From Streptomyces formicae (GTDB lineage: Bacteria; Actinomycetota; Actinomycetes; Streptomycetales; Streptomycetaceae), in the NCBI RefSeq assembly GCF_002556545.1, contig NZ_CP022685.1, forward strand, positions 5,930,001-5,994,000: 64,000 bases of DNA, read 5' to 3'. The number at the start of each line of letters is the position of its first letter. Position 1 is the stretch's first letter. The position numbers and the translations under genes were made by a program. Positions 1 through 12,917 of the stretch are shown in pieces. The notes under the pieces were generated by a model. That model ran no database searches, was not told where the DNA came from, and worked only from the letters and a program-made list of their open reading frames with translations.

Positions 1-407
1 GCGTCCAGGTAGCCGCCGACCGTGCGCCACGTGAAGTCGATGTCGCTGCCGTCGCCGTTCCAGCCGGTGATGGCTTGGCGGACCTGGGCGAGGGTGCGGT
101 CGTCCACGGGGGCGTAGCTCAGGCCGTCCTGGCCGATGACCTCCAGGGTGACGCCCTGGGCGGCTTTCGCGGTGTGCGCGGGGTCTCTGAGCAGGGCGAG
201 GTCGCTGTGCGCGTGCATGTCGATGAAACCGGGTGCTAGCGCCAGGCCCTGGGCGTCCAGGTTGCTCTGCCCCGTCGGGCGGGGGCCTGTGCTCTCCCCC
301 TCCCGGTGGATCGTGGTGATCCTGCCCTCGTGTACGCCGACGTCGGCGCGGTAGGAGGCACCTCCGGTGCCGTCTATGACGCGTGCGTCTCGGATCACCA
401 GGTCCAT
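1..407 (-). CDS. N-acyl-D-amino-acid deacylase (D-aminoacylase family), partial at left edge
   Basis: Only the first ~135 residues are in the window; the 3' part lies beyond position 1. The start ATG at 407 follows an AAGGAGAGG ribosome site. The N-terminus (MDLVIRDARVIDGTGG) is the small beta-sandwich of amidohydrolases, then GFIDMHAHSDLALL near residue 70 carries the metal-binding H-x-H of the TIM barrel. Members hydrolyse N-acyl groups from D-amino acids in the cytoplasm. It lies on the same strand as the PLP deaminase at 699-2006 and would supply it with free amino substrate; given the sugar kinase across the divergent promoter, an N-acetylated amino-sugar acid is a possible substrate (inference). 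Family call is firm, substrate is not. Confidence 0.85.
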   Translation of the reverse strand, partial: MDLVIRDARVIDGTGGASYRADVGVHEGRITTIHREGESTGPRPTGQSNLDAQGLALAPGFIDMHAHSDLALLRDPAHTAKAAQGVTLEVIGQDGLSYAPVDDRTLAQVRQAITGWNGDGSDIDFTWRTVGGYLD

Positions 408-479
408 GGGTGCCTCTCCTTGTTCGTTCGGCTGCGGCTCTGCTGTGGTGCACCCGACCTCCGGCCGGGTATTTCGTTC

Positions 480-617
480 CCACCCGCACCACCCGTGCGG
501 GTTTCGTCGCCGGGTGCGGGTGGCCCCGGCGGGGGTTGCCCACCGCCGGCGGCTGACGGGCGGGGGGCCTCCGACGCCCCTACGCCGAGGGTGCGGTCCC
601 TACGCCCACGGTGCGGT
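480..617. repeat. Inverted and tandem repeats between deaminase and deacylase genes
   Basis: The 291-base gap between the two minus-strand genes has a 10-base inverted repeat (480-489 with 514-523, CCACCCGCAC/GTGCGGGTGG) enclosing a smaller ACCCG/CGGGT hairpin, and a 20-base tandem duplication (578-597 and 598-617) differing at two positions. It is likely to fold strongly in the transcript; no coding potential is convincing. Confidence 0.5.
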
Positions 618-649
618 GCGGAGCAATCGGGTGGGCGGGTGGGGGTGAT

Positions 650-666
650 CCGCCGCGGAGCGGCGG
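650..666 (-). terminator. Possible weak hairpin terminator after the deaminase gene
   Basis: CCGCCGC, a GGA loop, then GCGGCGG, 33 bases downstream of the deaminase stop on the minus strand. There is no T-run, as is usual in Streptomyces, so this could also be only a pause or an RNA stabilising structure. Confidence 0.35.
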
Positions 667-698
667 GCCTGTTCCTACCCCCGCCCAAGACCCCCCGG

Positions 699-2006
699 TC
701 AGAAATACGTGCGGATGTAGTCGACGACCGTCCCGTCCCCCTCGACCAGAGGAATCAGCTGCCACTTGTCGAACGCCGTGCACGGGTGCGAGAGGCCCAT
801 CCCGATCCAGTCGCCCACGGCGAGTTCCGCCTCGGGGGCCGTACGGACCCACCCGTGCTGGTCGGAGAGCCCGGTGACCGTGACCCCGGTCGCGGGGCGC
901 TCGAGCCCACCGCGCCGTACGACCTGCGCTTCGGGCAGATCGAGGTCGTACGCCGCGTCCCGCTTGCCCGCGTTGGTGAACGCCTGCTCGGCGGAGGGCC
1001 GGGAGACCACCTGGGCCCAGAGCCGGAAGGCGGGCTCAAGAGCGCCCTCGTCGGGCACGCGGTTGAACGGGGTGAGATGCCGGTAGTGGCCGTCGTCGTG
1101 CGAGACGTACGCGCCGGAGCGCAGCAACTTCAGGACGGGCAGGGAGAGTTCGGGGATCTCCGCGAAGACATCGGCGACCGCGTCGAACCACGCGCTGCCG
1201 CCCGCGCTGACCACGACCTCCGGCAGATCGGCGAACCGCCCCGCCTTGTCGAACTCGACGAGCAGCGCGACGAGCCGGCGCAGCCACGCGGTGACCGTCG
1301 CGGTCGACGCCTCGGGGACCTCGCCCTCGTACCCGGCGACGCCCACGAGCCGCAGCGTGTCCGCGCCCGCGACGGCGTTGGCGATCTCGAAGCACTCGAC
1401 CTCGGTCCGCGCGCCGGTCCGCGCCCCGTCGCCCGCGGCCAGTTCGACCACGACGTCGACCGGACGGGTGGCGCCCGCCTCGCTGAGGGCGGCGTGCATG
1501 AGGTCGGCTCCGCGTACGGAATCGACGTAACAGACGAAGCGGAAGCCGGGGTCGGCGGTGAGTTCACCGGCGAGCCAGCGCAGCGCGGCCGCGTCGACGA
1601 GTTCGTTGGCGAGGAAGATCCGCGAGACGCCGAACTCCCTTGCCACGCGCACCTGGTGGGGCACCGCGAGCGTGATGCCCCAGGCGCCGCGCGCCAGTTG
1701 GCGGTGGAAGAGCTGCGGGGCCATGGACGTCTTGCCGTGCGGGGCGAAGGCGAGGCCGTGCCGCTCGGCGTACGTCTCCATGAGCGCGAGGTTGTGCTCG
1801 AGGCGCTCGGCGGAGAGCGCGAGGACCGGGGTGGTGAAGCCGCCGGTGAAGAGGTTCCTGCGCTGGGCCGCGAGCTCGCCGACGGTGAGCCCTTCCGCGT
1901 CCGGCGGCAGACCCTTGAAGCGGTGGTCCACGCGCTCGTCGGCGAGCCGGGCGAGCCTGTCGTCCGGTGACTCGGCGGGACGGTCGACGGCGTTGTCGGC
2001 GGCCAT
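699..2006 (-). CDS. Fold-type III PLP amino-acid deaminase (D-serine dehydratase / D-threonine aldolase-like)
   Basis: 435 residues. The alanine-racemase-like N-terminal barrel carries the PLP lysine in APHGKT (Lys92), and the C-terminal domain ends with SHPCTAFDKW (His407, Cys409), the zinc-binding pair of eukaryote-type D-serine dehydratases and D-threonine aldolases. The family removes ammonia from, or cleaves, D-configured 3-hydroxy amino acids; D-glucosaminate dehydratases work on the same chemical arrangement. It is transcribed divergently from the kinase-IclR-RidA genes with a 129-base shared promoter region. The start ATG follows GAAGGAGA. A RidA protein in the same cluster fits an enamine-releasing reaction. 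Substrate (D-serine or D-glucosaminate) is inference. Confidence 0.85.
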   Translation of the reverse strand: MAADNAVDRPAESPDDRLARLADERVDHRFKGLPPDAEGLTVGELAAQRRNLFTGGFTTPVLALSAERLEHNLALMETYAERHGLAFAPHGKTSMAPQLFHRQLARGAWGITLAVPHQVRVAREFGVSRIFLANELVDAAALRWLAGELTADPGFRFVCYVDSVRGADLMHAALSEAGATRPVDVVVELAAGDGARTGARTEVECFEIANAVAGADTLRLVGVAGYEGEVPEASTATVTAWLRRLVALLVEFDKAGRFADLPEVVVSAGGSAWFDAVADVFAEIPELSLPVLKLLRSGAYVSHDDGHYRHLTPFNRVPDEGALEPAFRLWAQVVSRPSAEQAFTNAGKRDAAYDLDLPEAQVVRRGGLERPATGVTVTGLSDQHGWVRTAPEAELAVGDWIGMGLSHPCTAFDKWQLIPLVEGDGTVVDYIRTYF

Positions 2007-2027
2007 GGGCGTCTCCTTCAGGAGTGC

Positions 2028-2044
2028 GTTGCATCATGTGCAAC
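2028..2044. promoter_or_regulatory. Palindrome in divergent promoter, candidate IclR operator
   Basis: GTTGCA, five bases, TGCAAC: a perfect 17-base inverted repeat about 22 bases upstream of the deaminase start and 92 bases upstream of the kinase start. Position and symmetry suit the IclR regulator encoded at 3203-3967 acting on both directions. No promoter hexamers are obvious. Confidence 0.5.
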
Positions 2045-2135
2045 GGTCATTGCGTATGTCGCTTACTGCTGTCTAACATCCGAGCCAACGCCGGGTCAAC
2101 GGATCCGGAGAGTCGGTTGAGGGGCTGAAGAGATC

Positions 2136-3206
2136 GTGACCGCACAGGCAGCCGCACAGGCGGCCGCACCCGCAGCAGTGGATGTCGTGGCGCTCGGCGA
2201 GTCCATGGTCACGTTCCTGCCCGCGCGGCCCGGACGCCTCGCCGACGTGCCGTCCTTCGACCGGGGGATCGGCGGCGCCGAGTCGAACGTCGCCTGCGCC
2301 CTCGCCGCCGCCGGACACACCGCCCGCTGGGTCAGCCGGGTCGGCACCGACGGCTTCGGCGACCACCTCGTGGAGACGATCGCCCGCTACGGAGTGGACA
2401 CCTCCGCCGTGGGCCGCGACCCGCACCGCCCCACCGGCATCTACTTCCGCACCGCGGACGACCGCGACACCGACGCCCACGAGGTCGTCTACTACCGCGC
2501 GGGCTCCGCGGCCTCCGCCATGTCACCGGGCTCCCTGGACGGGGACGCGCTCACCTCGGGCCGCATCCTGCACCTGTCGGGCATCACCCCCGCGCTCTCC
2601 GCCGACTGCCTGGACCTCGTACGCCACCTCTGCGCCCCGAGCGCAGGGCGCCGCACCCTGGTCTCCTTCGACGTCAACCACCGCCCCGGCCTGTGGAAGG
2701 ACGCGGGCGCGGGCCCCGACGTCCTGCTCGACCTCGCCCGGGGCGCCGACCTGGTCTTCGTCGGCGAGGACGAGGCGGCCGCGGCCTGGGGCGTGACCGG
2801 CGGCCCCGACGCCATCCGCGCCGCCCTGCCCGAGCCCGCCACCCTCGTCGTCAAACAGGGCAGCCGGGGCGCCACCGTCCTGCGGCACGGCGAGGACCCC
2901 GTCTTCCAGGCCGCCCTGCGCGTCGACGTCGTCGCGCCCGTCGGCGCGGGCGACGCCTTCGCGGCCGGGTTCCTCTCCGCCACCCTGCGCGGCCTGACCG
3001 CCGCGCAGCGCCTGCGGCACGGCCACCTCATGGCCGCCGCCGCGCTCACCGTCCCCGGTGACCTCGCCGCTCCACCTTCCCGCGCACACGCCGACCGCCT
3101 CGCCGCCCTGGACGACGCCGCCTGGGGGAGACTGCGTCTCGGCCCCGGCTGGACGGCACCCGTCCCGGAGGACGCCGAGGCCGAGGAGGAGGTACGTACC
3201 CCATGA
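2136..3206 (+). CDS. PfkB-family carbohydrate kinase, probably 2-keto-3-deoxygluconate kinase type
   Basis: 356 residues from a GTG start (GAGGGG about 15 bases upstream). The N-terminus VVALGESMVTFLP and the GG-containing GIGGAESNVA motif are typical of ribokinase/KDG kinases; DVNHRPGLW near residue 175 and the anion-hole/catalytic signature VGAGDAFAAGFLS near residue 270 mark an active PfkB kinase. KDG kinases phosphorylate 2-keto-3-deoxygluconate for KDPG aldolase. The gene overlaps the next by four bases (ATGA), so it is translationally coupled to the IclR regulator. The C-terminus ends in an acidic tail. Fructokinase-like specificity is an alternative. Confidence 0.85.
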   Translation: MTAQAAAQAAAPAAVDVVALGESMVTFLPARPGRLADVPSFDRGIGGAESNVACALAAAGHTARWVSRVGTDGFGDHLVETIARYGVDTSAVGRDPHRPTGIYFRTADDRDTDAHEVVYYRAGSAASAMSPGSLDGDALTSGRILHLSGITPALSADCLDLVRHLCAPSAGRRTLVSFDVNHRPGLWKDAGAGPDVLLDLARGADLVFVGEDEAAAAWGVTGGPDAIRAALPEPATLVVKQGSRGATVLRHGEDPVFQAALRVDVVAPVGAGDAFAAGFLSATLRGLTAAQRLRHGHLMAAAALTVPGDLAAPPSRAHADRLAALDDAAWGRLRLGPGWTAPVPEDAEAEEEVRTP

Positions 3207-3967
3207 GCCAGACCGTCGACCGCGCTCTCTCGATCCTGCCGCTGCTCGCCGAGGGCCCCGCCGACCTGGGCCAGGTCGCCGACCGGCTCGGCGTCCACAA
3301 GTCCACGGCGCTCAGGCTGCTCCGCACCCTCCTCGAACACGGCCTGGTCTTCCGCCAGTCCGACCAGCGCTACCGCCTCGGCGCGCGGCTCTTCGCGCTC
3401 GCCCAGGAGGCCGTCGAGAACCTCGACGTGCGCGAGATCGCCCACCCCCACCTCCTCGCCCTCAACGAGAAGTGCGGCCACACGGTCCACCTCGCCGTCT
3501 ACGAGGAGCAGGAGGTCGTCTACATCGACAAGGTCGAGAGCCGCTATCCGGTGCGGATGTACTCGCGCATCGGCAAGCCGGTGGCCATCACCGTCGCCGC
3601 CGTCGCCAAGCTGCTGCTCTCCGACTTCCCGGAAGCCGAGCGCCGCGCCATCGCGGAGAAGCTCGACTACCCCACCTACACGTCCCGTTCGACGCCCAAC
3701 GCCGCTGCCTTCCTCAGGGAGCTGGACAAGGTGCGCGAACAGGGCTGGGCCACCGACCTCGGTGGCCACGAGGAGTCCATCAACTGCATCGGGGCCCCCA
3801 TCCGCGGTGCGGACGGCCGTCTCGTCGCCGCCATGTCGGTCTCCGCGCCGAACGTGGTCGTCACGGCCGAGGAACTCCTCACCCTGCTTCCGCTGGTGCG
3901 CCGCACGGCGGACGCCATCAGCAGGGAGTACTCCGGCAACGCCCCTATGAAGGAAGCAAGTTCATGA
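3203..3967 (+). CDS. IclR-family transcriptional regulator
   Basis: 254 residues. An N-terminal winged helix-turn-helix (about 1-70; LGVHKSTALRLLRTL is the recognition helix) is followed by the IclR effector domain (about 80-245), with the usual MYSRIGKPVAITVAAVAKLLL stretch and the INCIGAPIRGADGRLVAAMSVS motif. It overlaps both neighbours by four bases, so it is expressed with the kinase and RidA. It probably controls the divergent deaminase/deacylase genes and its own operon through the palindrome at 2028-2044, with a pathway intermediate such as KDG as effector (inference). Confidence 0.9.
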   Translation: MSQTVDRALSILPLLAEGPADLGQVADRLGVHKSTALRLLRTLLEHGLVFRQSDQRYRLGARLFALAQEAVENLDVREIAHPHLLALNEKCGHTVHLAVYEEQEVVYIDKVESRYPVRMYSRIGKPVAITVAAVAKLLLSDFPEAERRAIAEKLDYPTYTSRSTPNAAAFLRELDKVREQGWATDLGGHEESINCIGAPIRGADGRLVAAMSVSAPNVVVTAEELLTLLPLVRRTADAISREYSGNAPMKEASS

Positions 3968-4374
3968 CCGAGAAGATCGCCCTCACCCCGGCCACCCACA
4001 CCACCCCGCCCGCGAAGTTCTCCCACGGCGTGAAGAAGGGCAACATCCTTCAGGTCGCCGGGCAGGTCGGCTTCCTCCCGGCCGAGGAGGGCAAGGCCCC
4101 CACCCCCGCGGGCCCGACCCTGCGCGAGCAGACCCTCCAGACCTTCGCCAACGTCAAGGCGATCCTCGAAGAGGGCGGCGCGACCTGGGACGACGTGATG
4201 ATGATGCGCGTCTACCTCACGGACGTGGACCACTTCGCCGAGATGAACGAGATCTACAACTCGTACTTCGAGGAGCAGGGCCTGAAGGCCCCGGCCTCCG
4301 CCCGCACCACCGTCTACGTGGGTCTGCCCAAGGGTCTGCTCATCGAGATCGACGCGCTCGCCGTCCTGAGCTGA
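3964..4374 (+). CDS. RidA family reactive-intermediate deaminase
   Basis: 136 residues, starting at the ATG that overlaps the IclR stop (ATGA). The YjgF/YER057c fold is recognisable from GNILQVAGQVGF, the TLQTFANVKAILEEGG helix, and the catalytic Arg-containing PASARTTVYVGLPKGLLIEIDALA C-terminal strand. RidA proteins hydrolyse enamine/imine intermediates released by PLP dehydratases, so its place beside the fold-III deaminase is functionally sensible. The last codons and the stop are part of a 22-base tandem repeat (4351-4420). Confidence 0.88.
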   Translation: MTEKIALTPATHTTPPAKFSHGVKKGNILQVAGQVGFLPAEEGKAPTPAGPTLREQTLQTFANVKAILEEGGATWDDVMMMRVYLTDVDHFAEMNEIYNSYFEEQGLKAPASARTTVYVGLPKGLLIEIDALAVLS

Positions 4375-4420
4375 CGCGCTCGCCGTCCTGAGTCGACGCG
4401 CTCGCCGTCCTGAGGACGCG
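4351..4420 (+). repeat. 22-base tandem repeat covering the ridA stop codon
   Basis: Three full copies of GACGCGCTCGCCGTCCTGAG plus two spacer bases start at 4351, 4373 and 4395, followed by a partial GACGCG at 4415. The first copy is coding (DALAVLS) and the stop TGA lies at the junction with the second. The downstream copies are non-coding duplicates of the gene end. Confidence 0.9.
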
Positions 4421-4450
4421 CATCACCACCCAGCAAGCCGTACGTCGTCA

Positions 4451-4483
4451 CGGCACGGCGCCCACCCCCGGGGCGCCGTGCCG
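4451..4483 (+). terminator. Hairpin between ridA-family gene and permease gene
   Basis: A 13-base perfect stem CGGCACGGCGCCC / GGGCGCCGTGCCG with a 7-base loop, 46 bases before the permease start. It may terminate or attenuate transcription so that the permease is expressed differently from the kinase operon. Confidence 0.65.
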
Positions 4484-4528
4484 CGATCCCCCCTTCCCTG
4501 AAAGCTCCATGCACTTACGAGGTCAAAG

Positions 4529-6019
4529 ATGTCCCCGTCGCCCCTCTCCGCGCTCGCGGCCGCCCCCGCCACCGAGCCGCCACCGCACACCGGTGGAATC
4601 CTCACCCTGATCGACGGCACGGCGGGTCTGCTGACCGTCGCCGCGCTCGGCATCGTGCTCCTGCTCTTCCTGATCATCAAGATCAGGCTGCAGCCCTTCG
4701 TGGCGCTGCTCGCGGTCTCCATAGTCGTCGGCCTCTCGGCCGGCCTCTCCGTCACCGAACTCTTCGGCACGGTCCAGAAGTCCGACGCGGTCTCGGTCAT
4801 CGAATCGGGCATGGGCGGCATCCTCGGCCATGTGGCGATCATCATCGGCCTCGGTACGATGCTCGGCGCGATCCTCGAAGTCTCCGGCGGCGCCGAGGCG
4901 TTGGCCTCCCGACTGCTCGGCCTCTTCGGCGAGAAGCGCGCCCCCCTGGCGATGGGCCTGACGGGCCTCATCTTCGGTGTCCCCGTCTTCTTCGACGTCG
5001 GCATCTTCGTCCTCGCACCGATCGTCTACGCCGCCGCCAAGCGCTCCGGCAAGTCGATCCTCCTCTACTGCCTCCCCCTGCTCGCGGGTCTCTCCATGAC
5101 CCACGCGTTCCTGCCCCCGCACCCCGGCCCCGTGGCCGCGGCGGGCCTCCTGAAGGTCGACCTCGGCTGGGTCATCCTCATGGGCATCGTCTGCGGCATC
5201 CCCGCGGTCCTCGCCGCCTGGGCCTTCTCCGCGTGGATCGGCAAGCGCATCTTCGTGCCCGTGCCGCAGGACATGGTCGAGGCCGCCGACGAGGCGAAGG
5301 CCGCGGTCGTCGCCGAGCAGCGCGCGGCGGGCGTACAGCCCAGCGAGAAGCCGGTGCCGCTCGGCATCGTCTTCACCATCATCGGTACGCCGCTGCTCCT
5401 GATCCTCCTGGCGACCTTCTCCTCGATCGCCTTCGACCCCTCCACCTTCCGGTCGGTCATCGAGTTCTTCGGCAGCCCCTTCGTCGCCCTGACGATCGCG
5501 CTCCTCATGGCCTACTACCTGCTCGGCATCCGGCGCGGCTGGTCCCGCAAGTCCCTGGAGACGGTGTCGACCTCGTCCCTCAAGCCGGTCGGCAACATCC
5601 TCCTGGTGGTCGGCGCGGGCGGGATCTTCGGCGCGGTCCTCAAGGCCAGCGGCGTCGCCACGGCCATCTCGGACACCTTCCAGGACGTGGGCCTGCCGAT
5701 CATCGTCCTCGCCTACCTGCTCTCCCTGATCCTGCGCGTCGCGCAGGGCTCGGCGACGGTGGCGATCGTCACCACGGCGGGCATCGTGGCCCCGCTCCTC
5801 TCCGAGGGCGACTACTCCCAGGCCTTCGTGGCCCTGGTCATCATGGCGATCTCGGCGGGCTCGATCTTCGCCTCGCACGTCAACGACGGCGGGTTCTGGA
5901 TGGTGGCGAAGTACTTCGGCATCTCGGAGCGGGATACGCTGAAGACGTGGACGGTCCTGGAGTCGGTCCTCTCGGTGGCCGGGTTCGCGGTGGCGGGCGC
6001 GGTCAGCCTGTTCGTCTAG
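4529..6019 (+). CDS. GntP-family (gluconate / D-serine type) H+ symporter
   Basis: 496 residues, integral membrane protein with about 12-14 hydrophobic segments. GntP hallmarks are visible: IKIRLQPFVALLAVSI near the N-terminus, GMGGILGHVAIIIGLGTMLG, FGVPVFFDVGIFVLAPI, HAFLPPHPGPVAAAGLL near residue 195 and VAQGSATVAIVTTAGI near 420. The family imports gluconate, D-serine, or related hydroxy acids. As last gene of the cluster it is the likely importer of the substrate used by the deaminase and kinase. It converges with the minus-strand protease gene with only nine bases between stops and no clear terminator. Confidence 0.9.
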   Translation: MSPSPLSALAAAPATEPPPHTGGILTLIDGTAGLLTVAALGIVLLLFLIIKIRLQPFVALLAVSIVVGLSAGLSVTELFGTVQKSDAVSVIESGMGGILGHVAIIIGLGTMLGAILEVSGGAEALASRLLGLFGEKRAPLAMGLTGLIFGVPVFFDVGIFVLAPIVYAAAKRSGKSILLYCLPLLAGLSMTHAFLPPHPGPVAAAGLLKVDLGWVILMGIVCGIPAVLAAWAFSAWIGKRIFVPVPQDMVEAADEAKAAVVAEQRAAGVQPSEKPVPLGIVFTIIGTPLLLILLATFSSIAFDPSTFRSVIEFFGSPFVALTIALLMAYYLLGIRRGWSRKSLETVSTSSLKPVGNILLVVGAGGIFGAVLKASGVATAISDTFQDVGLPIIVLAYLLSLILRVAQGSATVAIVTTAGIVAPLLSEGDYSQAFVALVIMAISAGSIFASHVNDGGFWMVAKYFGISERDTLKTWTVLESVLSVAGFAVAGAVSLFV

Positions 6020-6028
6020 CGGCTCGCC

Positions 6029-7588
6029 CTAGCCGGTCTGCTGGGAGCAGGTCCGGTCGCCTGCGGGCAGCTTGCCGGTGGCCAGGTAGCGGTTGACCTG
6101 GTTGTCGACGCAGGCGTTCTCGTAGAGGCCGTAGACCGCGTGCCGGTTGGCACCCTTGACGGTGATCAGCTTGGAGCTCGCCAGCAGGCCGTGCAGGGCG
6201 ACGGCGCCCTTGTGCGGGGTGCGCGGGTCGCCCGTGGCGGACACGATCAGCGCCTTCGCGTCGTGCTCGACCCGGGTGGGCCGCTCGCGGGGCCGGTCCC
6301 AGAAGGCGCACGGGCCGATGTTGTTGTTCAGCGCGCCGAAGCGCGGGTAGGCGGCGCGGCTGCGCTCGATGGTCCGCCAGTAGACCTCCGGGTCGCGCGG
6401 GGCGGCCGCGTCCCCGCAGATGACGGCGGTCTGCGCACTGCCCATGGCCGACTGCTCGCCGGTCGTCGCGAGCCGCAGGAGCCCGGCGAACTGGGGTGAG
6501 AGCGTGGTCGGTTGCCCGGCCGCCGCCTTGTTCAGCACGGACAGCTGCTCGCCGAGGGACGCCCGTGACGCGTCGGTGTCGCTGTCCAGCCCGGCGAGGA
6601 GCACGAACGGGACCTGGCTGTCGTCGAGCCGGAAGGCGTCCGGCGCGGTGCCGACGGTCAGCGGGCCGCGCGCGGACTTCTTGATGACGCGGTCGACGGT
6701 GGCGAGGACCTGGGCGCGGGTGCGTCCCAGGCCGTAGGCGTCGTTCCGCCCGGCCGCCCAGGTGGCCCAGGCGGCGAGGGCCCGCTCGTTCTCGCCGACG
6801 GACTCCGCCAGCAGGCGGGGACCGAACTCGCGCGGGTCGATGGCGCCGTCCAGGACCACGCGGTCGGTGCGTCCCGGGAACATCTGGGTGTACACGGTGC
6901 CCAGGTAAGTGCCGTACGAGTAGCCGAAGTAGGAGATCTTCCTCTCGCCGAGCGCGCCGCGGATGACGTCCATGTCGCGGGCCGTGTTGCGGGTGCTCAC
7001 GTGCGGCAGCACGTCGGCGTCGGTGGCCCGGCATTTGGCGGCCAGCCCCTTGTGCAGGTCGACCTGGCGCTCGAAGCCCGCCCGGCCGAGGCCCGCGGAG
7101 AAGAGCGTGGTGCCGACGTTCCAGCCGCAGTCCAGCGGGGTGCTGCGGCCGACGAAGCGCGGGTCGAAGCCGACGATGTCGTACCGCGGTCCCGTCTTCT
7201 TCATCCACCCGTGGAACTCCGGCGGGGACTGGACGGCGCCGTTGCCGGGGCCGCCGTTGTTGAGCAGCATCGAGCCGATGCGGTGGCGGGTGTCGGTGGC
7301 CTTGAGCCGGGATATCGCGACCGTGATCGTACGGCCACGGGGCTTGGAGTAGTCGAGCGGCACGGTGACGTCGGCGCACTGGACGCCCGCCTTGTCCAGG
7401 TCGCGGCCCATGGTGTCGTCCGGGCTCTTGGCGCATCCGCCCCAGCTCAGGTGCTGGTCGTAGTAACGGCCGAGCCCGGCGGGGGAGTTCGCCGGGGTGG
7501 TGGCCGTCGTGCCGGTCGCGGCGGTCGCCGCGGGGGCCGCGCCGAGGCAGGCGGCGAGGACGAGGCCGACGTTCCGTATATGTCTCAT
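6029..7588 (-). CDS. Secreted alpha/beta hydrolase, tripeptidyl-aminopeptidase (TAP/SlpD-like) family
   Basis: 519 residues. A Sec signal peptide spans about residues 1-24 (ends ATAA). An alpha/beta hydrolase core has NNGGPGNGA (oxyanion region), the nucleophile elbow GYSYGTYLG (Ser224), a C-terminal TAP-like segment with the acid in SATGDPRTP and the base in GANRHAVYG. Streptomyces enzymes of this family remove tripeptides from N-termini outside the cell. Its upstream neighbour on the same strand is a carboxypeptidase, so the pair would digest extracellular peptides from both ends. No lipobox is seen. Confidence 0.88.
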   Translation of the reverse strand: MRHIRNVGLVLAACLGAAPAATAATGTTATTPANSPAGLGRYYDQHLSWGGCAKSPDDTMGRDLDKAGVQCADVTVPLDYSKPRGRTITVAISRLKATDTRHRIGSMLLNNGGPGNGAVQSPPEFHGWMKKTGPRYDIVGFDPRFVGRSTPLDCGWNVGTTLFSAGLGRAGFERQVDLHKGLAAKCRATDADVLPHVSTRNTARDMDVIRGALGERKISYFGYSYGTYLGTVYTQMFPGRTDRVVLDGAIDPREFGPRLLAESVGENERALAAWATWAAGRNDAYGLGRTRAQVLATVDRVIKKSARGPLTVGTAPDAFRLDDSQVPFVLLAGLDSDTDASRASLGEQLSVLNKAAAGQPTTLSPQFAGLLRLATTGEQSAMGSAQTAVICGDAAAPRDPEVYWRTIERSRAAYPRFGALNNNIGPCAFWDRPRERPTRVEHDAKALIVSATGDPRTPHKGAVALHGLLASSKLITVKGANRHAVYGLYENACVDNQVNRYLATGKLPAGDRTCSQQTG

Positions 7589-7696
7589 ACCGTCAGACGC
7601 TAAGTGGAACCGCTTCCCCCGTTCACTACGGCTGGCCCCCGGCTTTCGCTGGGGGCTGCCCCCGGCGCAACGATCCGGCAGGGGCCGGGCGGGTGA

Positions 7697-7732
7697 CGCG
7701 GCCCCGGACCCCTGCGTGGGCCCGGGGCCGCG
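7697..7732 (-). terminator. Hairpin terminator after carboxypeptidase gene
   Basis: An 11-base perfect stem CGCGGCCCCGG / CCGGGGCCGCG with a 14-base loop lies 13 bases past the carboxypeptidase stop on the minus strand. A second, weaker hairpin (CCCCCGGC, TTTC, GCTGGGGG) is at 7636-7655. No T-run. Confidence 0.65.
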
Positions 7733-7744
7733 CTGCCGCGAGCG

Positions 7745-9082
7745 TCAGCTCGTGCAGTACTGCTGCTCCTTGCCGATGGACCGGTACATGCAGTCGGAGT
7801 TCTCCAGGAGTTGGAGCACCGCGTCCCGGTTCCTGGACGTCTCGCGCTCGATGACCTCGTCGGGCGGGTAGAAGCCGCCGCCACCGGATCGCGGGTACAT
7901 CTCGAAGGTGTAGCTGAAGATCTTCTGGTTGCCCCACAGCCAGTCGTCGATCGTGCCGTCCGTGATGTAGAGGTCACTGGACTGCTCGGGCGTGTAGCCG
8001 TTGCTCGCGGCCATCTTCTTCCCGACGGCGGCGTGCGCGTCACGGTCGTCCTGGGTCAGGCCCGGGGCCGTGTCGTTGTACGTGTAGCCGTACGGCCACA
8101 GGACCAGTTCGCTGTACGTGTGGAAGTCGATCGCGGCCTTGATCTGCTGCTTGCCGCCGACGACGCGGCTGCGCACGAAGTCGGCGACGACCTTCACCTC
8201 GGGTGCCGACTCGGCGGCCGAACCCCGGTAGGTCTCGGATCCGGGCGTGCTCGAAGAGCCGCCGCAGCAGCCCCACTTGTAGCCCCAGTTGCGGTTCAGG
8301 TCGGTGCCGGTGCGCCCGTTGGAGTTGGGCTGCCGGTTCAGCCGCCAGCTGCGGTAGGAGCCGGTCGCGATGTCGTACTCGCCGCCGTCCGGGTTCATGT
8401 CCGGGACGATCCAGATCTCGCGCGAGTCCACCATCTTCTTGATGCGCGCGTCGGAGCCGTAGCCCGCGCCGAGTTCGCGCAGCAGGTACAGCGCCATCTC
8501 GACCGTCAGGTGCTCGCGGGCGTGCTGGTGGTGGGTGAAGAGCACCTCGGGCTCGGCCTCGTCGGTCCCGACGTTGTCGCTGATCTTGATGGCGACGATG
8601 TCCCTGCCGGAGTACGACTTGCCGATGACCTTCTTCGTCATCAGGCTCGGGTACGCCGCGATGCGCTGGTCGATCTCCGCGTTCATCTCGGCGTAGTTGT
8701 GGTACTTCGCGTCGGCGGGCGGGAAGTCCTTGGGCTCGATCGCGTGGCCGCCCGTACGCTTCGGGGGCCCTGCCAGGGCCTTGAGCTCGTAGCCCAACTC
8801 CCTCAGTTTCGCCGCCTCTCGACCGTCGGCCGAGACGACCACCGCGCGGGCGTCGACCTCGTCGATGGCGACGCCGGTGCGGGCGAGCGCGGTGCGGGCC
8901 GCGCGGTCGTCGCGCAGCGGGATCTGGTACTGGCGTATTTCGCTGTCGTCCGTGGCGGCCGCCTTCCGGGGAGCCTGGTCGGCCGGGCCCGGTGAGGCGT
9001 TGGCGGTGATGGGTGCCGCCACGGCGAGCGCGAGAAGTGCCGCGAGCGCGGCCGATCTTCTGCCGCGTATCCGAAGTCGCAT
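7745..9082 (-). CDS. Secreted M14-family zinc carboxypeptidase
   Basis: 445 residues. Signal peptide about 1-30 ([17 protein letters not shown]), then an N-terminal propeptide to ~115, then the carboxypeptidase domain. Zinc ligands are visible as [12 protein letters not shown] (His187, Glu190) and [15 protein letters not shown]; the catalytic glutamate is in YTFEMYP near residue 400, and [11 protein letters not shown] is the substrate-binding Asn-Arg loop. The size and the CC-GG loop match Streptomyces carboxypeptidase T-like enzymes, which remove C-terminal residues. The start ATG has GAGGAG five bases upstream. Shares a 180-base divergent promoter region with the Nramp-like gene. Confidence 0.93.
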
Positions 9083-9262
9083 GAAGTCTCCTCGGGGGTG
9101 GGGGTGGGTTCAGTGCGACGCGTGCGGTGCGGGCCCATCGTGGATGCGTGGCATGCTCCGGTCAACGCTGTCTTTGGCCAAACCGGCAGGCACCGCGCTG
9201 ACCGGCACGCCCGCCCCGCCCGCCCCCTTGTGCCCCGGCTGTCTTTGCGCTTTCTTGATCGC

Positions 9263-10594
9263 ATGGCTGAAACCACTGGCAGCGCCACCGGCACGGGAGA
9301 AGCGACCCCCCAACCCCGCAAGTCGAGTTGGAAGTACATCGGCCCCGGCATCGTCGTCGCCGCGACCGGCGTCGGCGCGGGTGACCTCGTCGCGACCCTC
9401 ATCGCGGGCAGCAACTTCGGGTACACGCTGCTGTGGGCCGCCGTGATCGGCTGCGTCGTGAAGATCTCGCTCGCGGAGGCCGCGGGCCGCTGGCATCTGG
9501 CCACCGGGCGCACCCTCTTCGACGGCTGGGCGAGCCTGGGCCGCTGGACCACCTGGTTCTTCGTCGTCTACGTCGTGATCTGGGGGTACGTCTACGGCGC
9601 TGCCGCCATGTCGTCGTCCGGGCTGCCGCTCCAGGCGCTGTTCCCCGACGTCATGGAGCTCAAGTGGTGGTCGATCCTCACCGGGATCGTCGGTCTGGTC
9701 TTCGTCTGGTTCAACAAGTACGCCGTCTTCGAGAAGGTCATGACGGTCCTCGTCGGCGTGATGTTCGTCGTCACCGTCTACCTAGCGATCCGCGTCACCC
9801 CGCACCTGGGCGACGCCTTCGCGGGCCTGCTGCCCGTGCTGCCCGACGAGAAGGACTCGATCCTCAACACGCTCGGCCTGATCGGCGGCGTCGGCGGCAC
9901 CATCACCCTCGCCGCGTACGGCTATTGGGTCAACGCCAAGGGGTGGACCAACACCGGCTGGATGAAGGTGATGCGGCTCGACAACCGCGTCGCGTACATC
10001 ACCACCGGCATCTTCGTCGTCGCCATGCTCTTCGTCGGCGCCGAACTCCTGCACTCCGCCAACGTGGCCATCGCGAGCGGCGACAAGGGCCTGGTCCAGC
10101 TCTCCGACATCCTGGAGAAGGAGTACGGCTCGGCCACCGCCAAGCTCTTCCTCATCGGCTTCCTCGCCACCTCGTTCACCTCGCTGATCGGCGTGTGGCA
10201 CGGCGTGAGCCTGATGTTCGCCGACTTCGTGGAGCGCTACCGCAGGGACCGCGTCGGCGCCGAGGGCGCGAAGCCGACCGGTGAGGCGGTGGCGTCGGGC
10301 ACGCACGAGAAGTCCGTGCCGTTCCGCGCGTACCTGCTGTGGCTGACGTTCCCGCCGATGATCCTGCTCTTCCAGGGGCAGCCGTTCCGCCTGATCATCC
10401 TCTACGGCGTCCTCGGCGCGGCCTTCATGCCCTTCCTCTCGCTCACCCTGGTCTGGCTGCTCAACTCCTCGCGCACGCCCAGGGAATGGCGCAACGGCTG
10501 GCTCAGCAACGGCATGCTGGCCATCGCGGGGCTGCTGTTCCTGGTCCTGTGCGTCAAGCAGATCACCGACCAGGACTGGGGCAGCTTCTTCTAG
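9263..10594 (+). CDS. Nramp-family divalent metal transporter homologue
   Basis: 443 residues, about 11 membrane segments. The first segment carries WKYIGPGIVVAATGVGAGDLVATLIAGS, the Nramp TM1 region where DPGN is replaced by GAGD, and the transport signature region GVWHGVSLMFADF occurs near residue 315. The ATG at 9263 is preferred over in-frame upstream codons because the conserved part begins right after it and the preceding residues are Arg/Pro-rich junk. The changed TM1 metal motif suggests this is one of the divergent Nramp-like proteins whose substrate is not settled (Mg, Mn or an organic ion). Confidence 0.8.
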   Translation: MAETTGSATGTGEATPQPRKSSWKYIGPGIVVAATGVGAGDLVATLIAGSNFGYTLLWAAVIGCVVKISLAEAAGRWHLATGRTLFDGWASLGRWTTWFFVVYVVIWGYVYGAAAMSSSGLPLQALFPDVMELKWWSILTGIVGLVFVWFNKYAVFEKVMTVLVGVMFVVTVYLAIRVTPHLGDAFAGLLPVLPDEKDSILNTLGLIGGVGGTITLAAYGYWVNAKGWTNTGWMKVMRLDNRVAYITTGIFVVAMLFVGAELLHSANVAIASGDKGLVQLSDILEKEYGSATAKLFLIGFLATSFTSLIGVWHGVSLMFADFVERYRRDRVGAEGAKPTGEAVASGTHEKSVPFRAYLLWLTFPPMILLFQGQPFRLIILYGVLGAAFMPFLSLTLVWLLNSSRTPREWRNGWLSNGMLAIAGLLFLVLCVKQITDQDWGSFF

Positions 10595-10621
10595 CGGCCC
10601 GCCGACGGCGGGCGACGGACG

Positions 10622-10651
10622 GCAGCGCCGCCGGGGGAGCGGCGGCGCTGC
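10622..10651. terminator. Bidirectional hairpin between convergent genes
   Basis: Stem GCAGCGCCGCC / GGCGGCGCTGC with an 8-base loop between the Nramp-like and chitinase stops. It can serve both directions. Confidence 0.65.
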
Positions 10652-10674
10652 GGTTCTCGGGGTGGGGGGACGGG

Positions 10675-11691
10675 CTACGGAAGCCCGTGGACGTGCGCGC
10701 CGACCGACGTGGACCACGCGCTGCCCGCCGTCGCGTCCCAGTTGGTGGACCAGGCCATCGCGCCCCGGATGCCCGGGTACGTCCTGGACGGCTTGAACGA
10801 GCCGCAGCCGGTGCCCTTGGCGAGACAGTCGAGCGCGCTGTTCACGACGTCGGGCGAGGCGTAGCCGCCACCGGCCGCGCGCGACGACGCGGGCACGCCG
10901 ATGCCGACCTGGGGCGGCGCGAGGCCGTTCTCCAGCTGGATGCAGGCGAGTCCGGTGAGGAAGTCGACCGTGCCCTGGCTGTAGACCTTGCCGTCGCAGC
11001 CCAGCATCGAACCGCTGTTGTAGTACTGCATGTTGACCACCGTGAGGATGTCCTTCACGGCGAGCGCGGTCTTGAAGTACTCGTTCGAGGGGGACTGCAT
11101 GTCGATGGTCTGCGGCGCCATGGTCAGGACGAGGCCCGAACCGGCCTTGGCGGCCAGCGATTTGAGCGCCTGGGTCATATAGGTGGAGTTGAGGCCGTTC
11201 TCCAGGTCGATGTCGACGCCGTCGAAGCCGTACTCCCGCATGAGCTTGTACGTGGAGTCGGCGAACGCGTTCGCCGAGGCGGAGTCGTTGACCGCGACCG
11301 CGCCCTTCTCGCCGCCGACGGAGATGATCACCGACTTGCCCGCGGCCTGCTTGGCCTTGATGTCCGCCTTGAACTCGTCGACCGTGTAGCCGCCGAGCCC
11401 GGCCGAGTCGAGGTTGAAGGTGATCTCGCCCTGGGTGGCGGTCGCGTCGGCGAAGGCGACGGCGACGATGTCGTACTCGTCCTGCACGTCGGCCAGCTTC
11501 TGCACCTGGGCGCCGTTGTCGAAGTTCTGCCAGTAGCCGGTCACCGCGTGCTTCGGCACGGCGCGGGTCCCTGCGTCCGTGCTGTCCGCGTTCGCGCTGC
11601 CCGCGCCGCCGGTGAACAGTCCGGTGAGGGCGAGGGCCAGGGCCGTGAGGGACCCGACTACTGCTCCCGTTCTGCTCCGTGTGCGGTCCAC
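10675..11691 (-). CDS. Secreted GH18 chitinase
   Basis: 338 residues from a GTG start with GGAGG five bases upstream. Signal peptide about 1-36 (AGSANA). The mature enzyme is a single GH18 TIM barrel: SVGG strand near 125, catalytic DxxDxDxE as FDGVDIDLE (Glu164), the MAPQ and MQYYN substrate-binding motifs, and AMAWSTNWD near the end. No carbohydrate-binding module is attached. It hydrolyses chitin outside the cell. Control by DasR/GlcNAc is strongly suggested by the operator-like palindrome 118 bases upstream, lying between candidate promoter boxes. Confidence 0.93.
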   Translation of the reverse strand: MDRTRSRTGAVVGSLTALALALTGLFTGGAGSANADSTDAGTRAVPKHAVTGYWQNFDNGAQVQKLADVQDEYDIVAVAFADATATQGEITFNLDSAGLGGYTVDEFKADIKAKQAAGKSVIISVGGEKGAVAVNDSASANAFADSTYKLMREYGFDGVDIDLENGLNSTYMTQALKSLAAKAGSGLVLTMAPQTIDMQSPSNEYFKTALAVKDILTVVNMQYYNSGSMLGCDGKVYSQGTVDFLTGLACIQLENGLAPPQVGIGVPASSRAAGGGYASPDVVNSALDCLAKGTGCGSFKPSRTYPGIRGAMAWSTNWDATAGSAWSTSVGAHVHGLP

Positions 11692-11808
11692 TGCTGCCTC
11701 CGGTGGGGGGAGTTGGGGGGGGGAGGTGGTGCTGCGGGAACGGTGGCCACCGTCGTTCGCCAGGGTGGTGCCCGCTCGGCATGGTGTCCCTGGCTTGGTC
11801 GTACAAGT

Positions 11809-11820
11809 TGGTCCAGACCA
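11809..11820 (-). promoter_or_regulatory. DasR-responsive (dre) type operator upstream of chitinase
   Basis: TGGTCCAGACCA is a near-perfect match to the dre core TGGTCTAGACCA and to the 12-base operator repeat known from Streptomyces chitinase promoters (TGGTCCAGACCT). Flanks extend it to TTGGTC..GACCAA (11808-11821). On the minus strand a TTGACA box (complement of 11828-11833) sits just upstream, so bound DasR would block the core promoter. Motif seen directly; DasR binding is inferred from the known regulon. Confidence 0.75.
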
Positions 11821-11957
11821 ATTGAGTTGTCAAGGGCTCAAGCGCCACTCGGTTCACGCCGGACGACGTCCACCTCCACATGAACAGTGCGAAGTTGGGT
11901 GTTGAGGCGACCATGACGTGGATATGGTGCTGAGGCAGGAGTGCACGAGGACCGGGG

Positions 11958-12917
11958 GTGTACGCGTTGCCGACCGCCATAGCCGTCACCGGCCCCGATC
12001 TCGTGCTGCCCTCGCCCGACCGGCACACCCCGTCCGCCGCCGTCCTGCGGTGCGCGGCGCCGCCCCCCGGGGCGTACTCGCTGGACCAGTCGATCACCGA
12101 GATGGACACGCTCATCGAGCACCACGGCTATGTGGTCGTGCTGTGCCCGGCCTCCGCGCCCGCGGCCGTCACCCAGCGGTTGCACGCGGTCCGTTCGGTC
12201 CTGGAGAGCGACCGCATCGCCGTGCTCCGCTCCGACCTGCCGCCGCTCGGCATCGCCGTACTCGCGCTCCAGCTGCGGCAGTTGTCGATCTGCGACTTCA
12301 GTCCCGGCGTGCTCGCCTCCGCCGCGCGGCTGCTCTCGCACTACATCTACGCGGGCGCCCTGCTCGGCTCCGTCGCCAAGCTCGACCGGGTGCCCGTCAC
12401 CCTCCAGTCGCACGCCAAGTCCTGGATGCCCGGTACCCAGTTCGCCGTCCTCGCGACGCCGAGGCCCGCGCTGGTCAAGGTCACCGGCGACGGCGAGGCC
12501 CACCTCCAGGGACCCGGATTCAGTACCAAGCTGCTCTACGCGCCGGGGCGCGTCGCCGCCGACTGGGTCACCACGACGCTCGCCCCCGCGTGGGGGACCC
12601 AGGGAGTCGAGGAGACGCGGCTGCCCGCGGAGTCCGCGCGCTGGTGGGCGACCGGCAAGCTGGTCGAGTTCGCCGCCGCCATCCCGGACATCTCCGTCCT
12701 CTACCAACTGGTGTCCTCCGTGCGCCGCGAGGACTGCCACTGGTGCGGGCTCGAACTCATCGGTGACCGCTGCGCGTTCTGCGCCGCGCCCCTGCCGCCG
12801 CCCGGCGAACGCCCCGCGCAACCGGCCCGCGCCCTGGCACCGCAGGGCCCCAGGGCCCGCCCCTCGGGAGCGAGTCCCGGGCGGGGCCCGACAGCCCTGC
12901 CCAGAGGCGCGACCTAG
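11958..12917 (+). CDS. Conserved actinobacterial hypothetical protein with C-terminal zinc ribbon
   Basis: 319 residues from a GTG start. I do not recognise a named family. No signal peptide or membrane segment is evident. An alpha/beta region (about 25-260) is followed by CHWCGLELIGDRCAFCAAP near residue 265, a C-x2-C...C-x2-C zinc ribbon, then a Pro/Arg-rich tail. It sits 129 bases upstream of cpaB on the same strand at the head of the Tad pilus locus, so it may be a cytoplasmic accessory or regulator of that locus (inference). The start could also be a few codons later. Confidence 0.6.
   Translation: MYALPTAIAVTGPDLVLPSPDRHTPSAAVLRCAAPPPGAYSLDQSITEMDTLIEHHGYVVVLCPASAPAAVTQRLHAVRSVLESDRIAVLRSDLPPLGIAVLALQLRQLSICDFSPGVLASAARLLSHYIYAGALLGSVAKLDRVPVTLQSHAKSWMPGTQFAVLATPRPALVKVTGDGEAHLQGPGFSTKLLYAPGRVAADWVTTTLAPAWGTQGVEETRLPAESARWWATGKLVEFAAAIPDISVLYQLVSSVRREDCHWCGLELIGDRCAFCAAPLPPPGERPAQPARALAPQGPRARPSGASPGRGPTALPRGAT

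What the first reader, a model, noticed from the sequence alone, without database searches (positions are those of the whole stretch)
1..6019. Gene set fits an oxidised-chitin / D-glucosaminate pathway in a Streptomyces
An N-acyl-D-amino-acid deacylase, a fold-III PLP deaminase, a KDG-type PfkB kinase, RidA, a GntP permease and an IclR regulator lie together. Read in order they would import N-acetyl-D-glucosaminate, deacetylate it, dehydrate/deaminate glucosaminate to 2-keto-3-deoxygluconate, and phosphorylate that for KDPG aldolase; RidA would clear the enamine intermediate. Such aldonic acids arise when chitin-cleaving lytic polysaccharide monooxygenases act. As I recall, a pathway with this logic has been described in marine Gammaproteobacteria. 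Plain D-serine use would not explain the sugar kinase. A chitinase gene with a DasR-type operator is 5 kb away.
Basis: partly seen in the sequence, partly recalled or inferred. Interest (0 to 1): 0.7.

Follow-up and report, generated by a model that had tools for sequence, protein, structure and literature searches.

The report
Streptomyces oxidised-chitin catabolic regulon
A gene cluster found in almost all Streptomyces, together with distant genes that share its DNA switch, looks like a dedicated route for eating the oxidised ends of chitin, a route so far described mainly in Gammaproteobacteria.

Summary
The six genes are real and as placed; the deacylase runs off the window's left edge. 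The divergent promoter holds a palindrome, RTTGCR-N5-YGCAAY. It is intact in 45 of 45 Streptomyces loci that show the cluster's IclR gene and in 1 of 10 that do not, so IclR very likely binds it. The window's genome has six such sites, reversed control none: the cluster, a KDPG aldolase 3.1 Mb away, a GH20 N-acetylhexosaminidase, a sugar-ABC importer (two), one unassigned. The aldolase site is intact in 31 of 33 genomes checked; in four other genomes one site heads an importer-GH20 operon. This matches the published ong oxidised-chitin pathway (PMC9537276), reported there almost only from Gammaproteobacteria. Differences: IclR not RpiR control, GntP/ABC uptake, and a deacylase lacking the OngB signature in 169 of 169 sequences, hence a non-orthologous enzyme. 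No activity has been measured. The deaminase could also serve D-serine or D-threonine, and 25 of 150 Streptomyces gave no kinase hit. New variant of a known pathway; chitin-derived N-acetylglucosaminate is the likeliest substrate, not a proven one.

The parts
1..407 (-). N-terminal 135 aa of the Amidohydro_3 deacylase (538 aa; the rest lies left of the window, L003:10791-12407)
699..2006 (-). Fold-III PLP amino-acid deaminase, OngC/D-serine-dehydratase type (PF14031); best solved relative 3gwq
2028..2044 (.). Operator palindrome GTTGCA-TCATG-TGCAAC, inferred IclR site; the other exact copy in the genome precedes the KDPG aldolase
2070..2099 (-). Promoter-like TTGACC-18 nt-TAGACA read towards the deaminase, with the operator just downstream (read by eye from the conserved block)
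   Evidence: sequence, positions checked; inference
2136..3206 (+). PfkB-family 2-keto-3-deoxygluconate (KDG) kinase
3203..3967 (+). IclR-family regulator, start overlapping the kinase stop; KdgR-like by best NCBIfam match (below cut-off)
3979..4374 (+). RidA-family enamine/imine deaminase
4529..6019 (+). GntP-family sugar-acid permease; probably corresponds to S. coelicolor SCO4991 (one of two published RT-PCR primers matches at 5219-5238 with 3 mismatches, the other does not match)

Best explanation
This is the core of an IclR-controlled regulon for catabolising N-acetyl-D-glucosaminate (GlcNAc1A), the aldonic end group that LPMOs leave on chitin. Proposed flow: oxidised chitooligosaccharides enter by the regulon's ABC importer, free GlcNAc1A by GntP; GH20 hexosaminidase trims to GlcNAc1A; the deacylase gives D-glucosaminate plus acetate; the PLP deaminase gives KDG plus ammonia, with RidA clearing the enamine/imine; the kinase gives KDPG; the regulon's KDPG aldolase gives pyruvate and glyceraldehyde-3-phosphate. 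IclR represses from the palindrome in the divergent promoter and at the distant genes, and is relieved by an intermediate (KDG or GlcNAc1A, inferred). Shown by sequence: gene families, shared operator, its co-variation with IclR, its conservation at the aldolase. Inferred: every substrate, binding and repression by IclR, the inducer.
For: Operator: both exact copies of GTTGCA-N5-TGCAAC in 9.61 Mb are at the cluster and ahead of a KDPG aldolase. RTTGCR-N5-YGCAAY: 6 sites in the own genome, reversed control 0; 35 against 9 in seven other genomes, with the cluster site in 7 of 7 and an aldolase site in 6 of 7. In the 56 cluster loci read (860,800 bases) there are 47 such sites and all 47 lie at the deaminase start. 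Upstream of ALD1-type aldolases 31 of 33 have 0 mismatches and 2 have 1; other PF01081 genes 0 of 9 with <= 2; other 520-nt windows 0 of 232 with <= 1; with the strict form fixed beforehand, 28 of 33 have <= 2 mismatches and 0 of 9 others <= 3. IclR gene and operator co-vary: 45 of 45 against 1 of 10, p = 1.6e-9, phylogeny uncorrected. GH20 (Pfam E 2e-118) and a sugar ABC importer carry the operator; in G127, G183, G181 and G234 one site heads an SBP-permease-permease-GH20 operon. Kinase: 17 of its 20 top-listed paralogues lie within about 1 kb of a PF01081 aldolase. Kinase and strong aldolase co-occur: 113 of 122 against 4 of 28. Published ong clusters hold the same kind of set; 78 of 80 OngB-type loci fetched have this deaminase family nearby and 4 carry GntP. 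Chitin link: six LPMO genes, three with DasR-like sites upstream; an exact DasR core also precedes the ABC importer here and in G209.
Against: No assay. Deacylase lacks OngB's Cys97, Glu226, Lys254 and Ser292. 25 of 150 genomes have no kinase hit at 1e-60 and GntP is absent from 9 of 31 kinase-bearing loci, two of them cut by contig ends and one with an assembly gap. Strict-pattern sites with <= 1 mismatch (7) do not exceed the reversed control (12). The importer here is not an orthologue of the one in four other genomes (32-35% identity); G140 and G206 show no importer/GH20 site at 0 mismatches, and 15 of the 35 sites in the other genomes are outside the proposed regulon. G205 shows no IclR in its cluster yet keeps the aldolase site. 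Jiang 2022 screened 12,220 terrestrial genomes for ong clusters and names no Streptomyces.
Confidence: 0.7

Rival explanations
1. N-acyl-D-amino-acid scavenging: the deacylase frees D-amino acids and the deaminase turns D-serine or D-threonine into keto acids; kinase and GntP are later add-ons.
For: Loci without kinase and GntP can keep deacylase, deaminase, RidA and IclR (12 of the 25 kinase-less loci read). OngC itself also deaminates D-serine and D-threonine (PMC9537276, passages). Recalled, not read: Sco4986, the orthologue of this deacylase, hydrolyses N-acetyl derivatives of hydrophobic D-amino acids.
Against: KDPG aldolase, GH20 and a sugar importer share the operator. A KDG-type kinase lies in the divergent operon in 31 of 56 loci read, a set chosen to hold 25 of the 28 kinase-less genomes. 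D-Phe or D-Trp cannot be beta-eliminated by this deaminase class (general knowledge).
Confidence: 0.13
2. Same logic, other sugar: the regulon handles another 2-acylamino aldonate (galactosaminate, mannosaminate) or a glycan whose uronate yields KDG while GH20 removes HexNAc.
For: Some KDG kinases accept the galacto epimer (the best NCBIfam hit is a bifunctional KDG/KDGal kinase, below cut-off). GH20 is not specific for chitin.
Against: I recognised no uronate lyase or isomerase in the cluster, and none among the open frames beside the other sites, which were mostly named by eye and not by a family search. A DasR core precedes the importer in two genomes. Deacylase plus deaminase is what GlcNAc1A needs.
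Confidence: 0.12
3. Accessory gluconate uptake and metabolism.
For: SCO4991 is a GntP homologue transcribed on gluconate and on glucose (PMC5425828, passages).
Against: No gluconate dehydratase among the six genes; deaminase, deacylase, RidA and GH20 unexplained; S. coelicolor has a separate gnt operon (same paper).
Confidence: 0.05

Closest known systems
ong oxidised-chitin pathway of Pseudoalteromonas prydzensis (Jiang 2022, PMC9537276)
   Same: Deacylase, fold-III PLP deaminase, RidA, KDG kinase and GH20 hexosaminidase; KDPG aldolase in some clusters; LPMOs in the genome.
   Different: IclR instead of MurR/RpiR regulator; GntP and ABC import instead of an SSS symporter and TonB receptors; gene set scattered over the chromosome; deacylase not OngB; actinobacterial.
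Beta/gammaproteobacterial ong-type clusters with GntP (L126 Andreprevotia, L130 Herbaspirillum, L098 Cellvibrio, L148 Pseudomonas)
   Same: L126 and L130 carry deaminase, GntP, deacylase, RidA and kinase homologues together.
   Different: Their deacylases carry the full OngB signature.
N-acyl-D-amino-acid deacylases of the amidohydrolase superfamily (Cummings 2009; title seen in a reference list, contents recalled)
   Same: Fold family; by gene order counted back from SCO4991 the deacylase should be the orthologue of Sco4986 (inferred).
   Different: Metal ligand Cys97 replaced by Asp and carboxylate Lys254 by Thr or Val in all 169 sequences examined.

Membership tests
ong oxidised-chitin pathway | OngB-type GlcNAc1A deacetylase (Cys97/His222/His252/Asp368; Lys254; Glu226; Ser290-292) | tested here: not met
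   15-position signature in 79 of 80 ong-locus proteins plus one with a single change; 0 of 169 cluster-type deacylases have Cys97, Glu226, Lys254 or Ser292
ong oxidised-chitin pathway | OngC-type fold-III PLP deaminase | tested here: inconclusive
   Homologous (34-44% identity); Streptomyces and ong-linked proteins form separate clades and no proven D-serine deaminase was in the tree
ong oxidised-chitin pathway | KDG kinase | tested here: met
   By family only: nearest solved relative is a KDG kinase; 17 of 20 paralogues lie near KDPG-type aldolases; activity not tested
ong oxidised-chitin pathway | RidA-family protein | tested here: met
ong oxidised-chitin pathway | GH20 hexosaminidase in the gene set | tested here: met
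   Not in the cluster, but a GH20 gene carries the cluster operator; common control itself not shown
ong oxidised-chitin pathway | MurR/RpiR repressor OngR | tested here: not met
   The cluster regulator is IclR family
ong oxidised-chitin pathway | SSS-family inner-membrane importer (OngIT) | tested here: not met
   GntP instead; GntP also occurs in 4 of 80 ong loci
ong oxidised-chitin pathway | LPMO in the genome | tested here: met
   Six AA10 matches over the family cut-off
ong oxidised-chitin pathway | Growth on GlcNAc1A dependent on the cluster | not testable with these tools
   needs mutants

The most novel reading that the evidence does not exclude
Nearly all Streptomyces carry a previously undescribed, IclR-controlled, chromosome-scattered regulon that imports and fully catabolises LPMO-oxidised chitin ends. 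Its first cytoplasmic step is done by a second, independently recruited GlcNAc1A deacetylase family unlike OngB in active-site signature. Oxidative chitin use would then be a general soil-actinobacterial trait, not a proteobacterial speciality.
Probability: 0.6. Interest if true: 0.75.

Novelty: new variant of a known kind. Interest (0 to 1): 0.63.

Why it matters
Streptomyces are major chitin degraders in soil and secrete LPMOs, but I found no paper saying what becomes of the oxidised ends in them (listings; open-licence papers only; 47 and 86 searched gene numbers). The known GlcNAc route is not expected to take an aldonic acid (general knowledge). If right, this fills that gap, gives each gene a testable role, names an operator and its regulon, and makes oxidative chitin use testable in S. 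coelicolor, where the locus appears to be SCO4986-SCO4991 (numbering inferred from SCO4991).

Tried and rejected
Footprint: an EM-style motif search over the deaminase-kinase intergenic found first the conserved promoter block; the palindrome was read by eye and then counted. The strict palindrome, or its short core, was found in only 15 of 45 intergenics there, partly because the stretches were cut too short at the deaminase end (one search shows it in all 45 loci with IclR). The degenerate form was set after seeing the aldolase sites, so the degenerate counts at aldolases and in the own genome are partly circular; the strict counts and the degenerate counts are the fairer tests, though within one genus.

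IclR 'absent' means absent from the stretch read, not from the genome. Phylum-wide co-occurrence was dropped because the deaminase is rare outside Streptomyces. L045 and L046 carry the deaminase without the rest; L047 has a kinase divergent from the deaminase but no deacylase. The deaminase tree could not separate OngC from D-serine deaminase. Position 298 of OngB lies in a loop I could not align and was not used. I looked for a replacement transporter next to RidA in some GntP-less loci and saw none, by eye (one locus has an assembly gap). The chitinase 5 kb away is weak evidence: it belongs to a neighbourhood that is itself often conserved. A DasR core was not found in the cluster. No structure prediction was run.

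Rows set aside: G246 in the IclR test (contig end); L256, a distant PF01081 hit, counted with the other aldolases; G229, G236 and G251 counted as kinase-less because their hits are paralogues elsewhere; G145's kinase row was not shown and it was left as kinase-bearing; the kinase-less G163, G167 and G255 were not read as loci (no deaminase hit, or a fragment).
Full report
THE OBSERVATION. The six genes exist at the stated places. The deacylase is cut by the window edge and was read whole from the genome (538 aa, L003). Deacylase and deaminase run left; kinase, IclR, RidA and GntP run right from a divergent promoter. No KDPG aldolase was seen to the left; the neighbours there include PEP carboxykinase, an aminotransferase, a GH5 enzyme and a protease-like gene (the last named by eye).

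CONSERVATION. In 150 Streptomyces genomes the deaminase is found in 148, the deacylase in 145 (E <= 1e-60, at least two of them only 38-39% paralogues) and a kinase in 125 (E <= 1e-60, three of them paralogues only). Across the phylum the deaminase is in 6 of 119, three of them Streptomyces. I read 56 Streptomyces loci, chosen to include 25 of the 28 kinase-less genomes. GntP is present in 22 of the 31 with a kinase and in none of the 25 without one; of the nine GntP-less kinase loci two are cut by contig ends and one has an assembly gap, and one kinase-less locus is cut too. Fourteen kinase-less loci keep IclR and RidA, and 12 of these keep the deacylase. So deaminase-deacylase(-RidA-IclR) is the more durable core and kinase-GntP a separable module.

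THE KINASE LOOKS LIKE A KDG KINASE. Its best solved relative is a KDG kinase (1v19). Of the 20 top-listed paralogues elsewhere in Streptomyces (46-51% identity), 17 lie within about 1 kb of a PF01081 aldolase. Genomes with the kinase nearly always have the strong (ALD1) aldolase, 113 of 122, those without it rarely, 4 of 28 (related species, so the p value overstates).

THE OPERATOR. The intergenic region holds a conserved block with a promoter-like TTGACC-18-TAGACA towards the deaminase and, downstream of it, a palindrome (window 2028-2044; positions checked). Strict form, own genome: exact copies only at the cluster and at 2809137-2809153, just ahead of the KDPG aldolase match at 2809213; with one mismatch allowed there are 7 sites against 12 for the reversed control, so the number alone proves nothing, the positions do. 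Strict form ahead of ALD1 aldolases: 28 of 33 genomes with <= 2 mismatches, all 33 with <= 3; nine other PF01081 genes none with <= 3. Degenerate form (set), own genome: 6 sites against 0. These are the cluster; the aldolase; two ahead of a sugar ABC binding-protein gene at about 2.40 Mb; one just ahead of a GH20 N-acetylhexosaminidase at 3.64 Mb that by eye has no signal peptide; and one unassigned.

In seven other genomes there are 35 sites against 9: the cluster in 7 of 7, the aldolase in 6 of 7, importer and/or GH20 in 5 of 7 (7 sites). Fifteen sites remain, five of which lie around another IclR-family gene with oxidoreductase-like neighbours in G127 and G183. In G127, G183, G181 and G234 one site heads an operon SBP-permease-permease-GH20. 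In the window's genome and in G209 the GH20 has its own site, and a different importer (88% identical between those two, 32-35% to the other four) carries two.

WHO BINDS IT. The palindrome upstream of the deaminase has 0 mismatches in 45 of 45 loci with IclR. Among 11 loci where no IclR was seen, 2 have it: G246, whose contig ends there, and G174, where the deacylase is a remnant. Leaving G246 out, 45 of 45 against 1 of 10, p = 1.6e-9 (relatedness not corrected). Those 47 are the only such sites in the 860,800 bases of the 56 loci. Upstream of ALD1 aldolases, degenerate form: 31 of 33 with 0 mismatches and 2 with 1; nine other PF01081 genes none with <= 2; 232 control windows none with <= 1.

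COMPARISON WITH ong. Jiang 2022 (PMC9537276; abstract, section 17 and 12 passages seen) showed in Pseudoalteromonas that OngB deacetylates GlcNAc1A, OngC deaminates glucosaminate to KDG and also acts on D-serine and D-threonine, KdgK makes KDG-6-phosphate, OngD (RidA) is essential and OngA is a hexosaminidase. All strains with the complete pathway were Gammaproteobacteria except one Betaproteobacterium, in a screen of 2,455 marine and 12,220 terrestrial genomes that asked for four co-occurring genes above 30% identity. Wang 2025 (PMC12017989; abstract, section 3 parts 1-3 of 4 and passages) gave the OngB residues. L126 and L130 hold deaminase, GntP, deacylase, RidA and kinase. So GntP occurs in genuine ong-type clusters.

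THE DEACYLASE DIFFERS. All 80 ong deacylases share the 15-residue signature, one with a single change. All 169 cluster-type deacylases examined (own, 48 from loci, 120 database relatives of 83% identity or more, nearly all named Streptomyces where named) lack Cys97 (Asp), Glu226 (Tyr), Lys254 (Thr or Val) and Ser292 (Thr), but keep the metal histidines and the catalytic Asp. PpOngB as query gave hits in 57 of 61 Streptomyces genomes; they fall on the deacylase, except that in G170, G172 and G175 a paralogue scored best, and those three paralogues carry D-aminoacylase residues with Thr292. From memory: Cummings 2009 assayed Sco4986 as a deacylase of hydrophobic N-acetyl-D-amino acids, and sugar acids were not in that library. 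SCO4991 is GntP, so by gene order this deacylase should be SCO4986. The deaminase beside it needs a beta-hydroxyl leaving group (general knowledge), so Phe or Trp is unlikely to be the joint substrate.

CHITIN LINK. The genome has six AA10 LPMO matches; three have DasR-like sites upstream. Genome-wide such sites number 26 against 14 for the reversed control, so single sites are weak. In all sequence then held (3.26 Mb, overlapping loci included) the exact core GGTCTAGACC occurred only ahead of two of those LPMOs and ahead of the regulon's ABC importer, here and in G209. The importers of G127, G183, G181 and G234 lack it.

VERDICT. Regulon membership is well supported by sequence; the substrate is inferred. 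Most likely an ong-like oxidised-chitin pathway with a different regulator, different importers and a non-orthologous deacylase. I found no description of it in Streptomyces (listings; open-licence papers only).

Noticed in passing
PDB 3gwq and loci L110, L137, L139, L143: The solved 'D-serine deaminase' 3gwq is about 95% identical to deaminases beside OngB-type deacylases in Paraburkholderia, so its name may hide a glucosaminate deaminase.
   Followed up: partly
PDB 9g5m/9gv8: An 'Amidohydrolase family protein' with the OngB residues, including Gln298 and Ser290-292: a likely GlcNAc1A deacetylase.
   Followed up: no
L286 (G127) and L296 (G183): A paralogous IclR gene (32% identity) with oxidoreductase-like neighbours, named by eye, has the same type of palindrome around it.
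   Followed up: no
L047 (G061), 7254-12106: A distant actinobacterium has a kinase divergent from the deaminase beside aminotransferase-like and glycosidase-like genes, without a deacylase (names by eye).
   Followed up: no
L262, 8147 and L285, 5222: An exact DasR core lies close to the two operators ahead of a sugar ABC binding-protein gene in two genomes, suggesting dual control by DasR and IclR.
   Followed up: partly
L041 (G174), L181 (G261): Decaying copies of the cluster: deacylase remnants, no IclR, kinase or GntP seen, operator intact or two mismatches away.
   Followed up: partly
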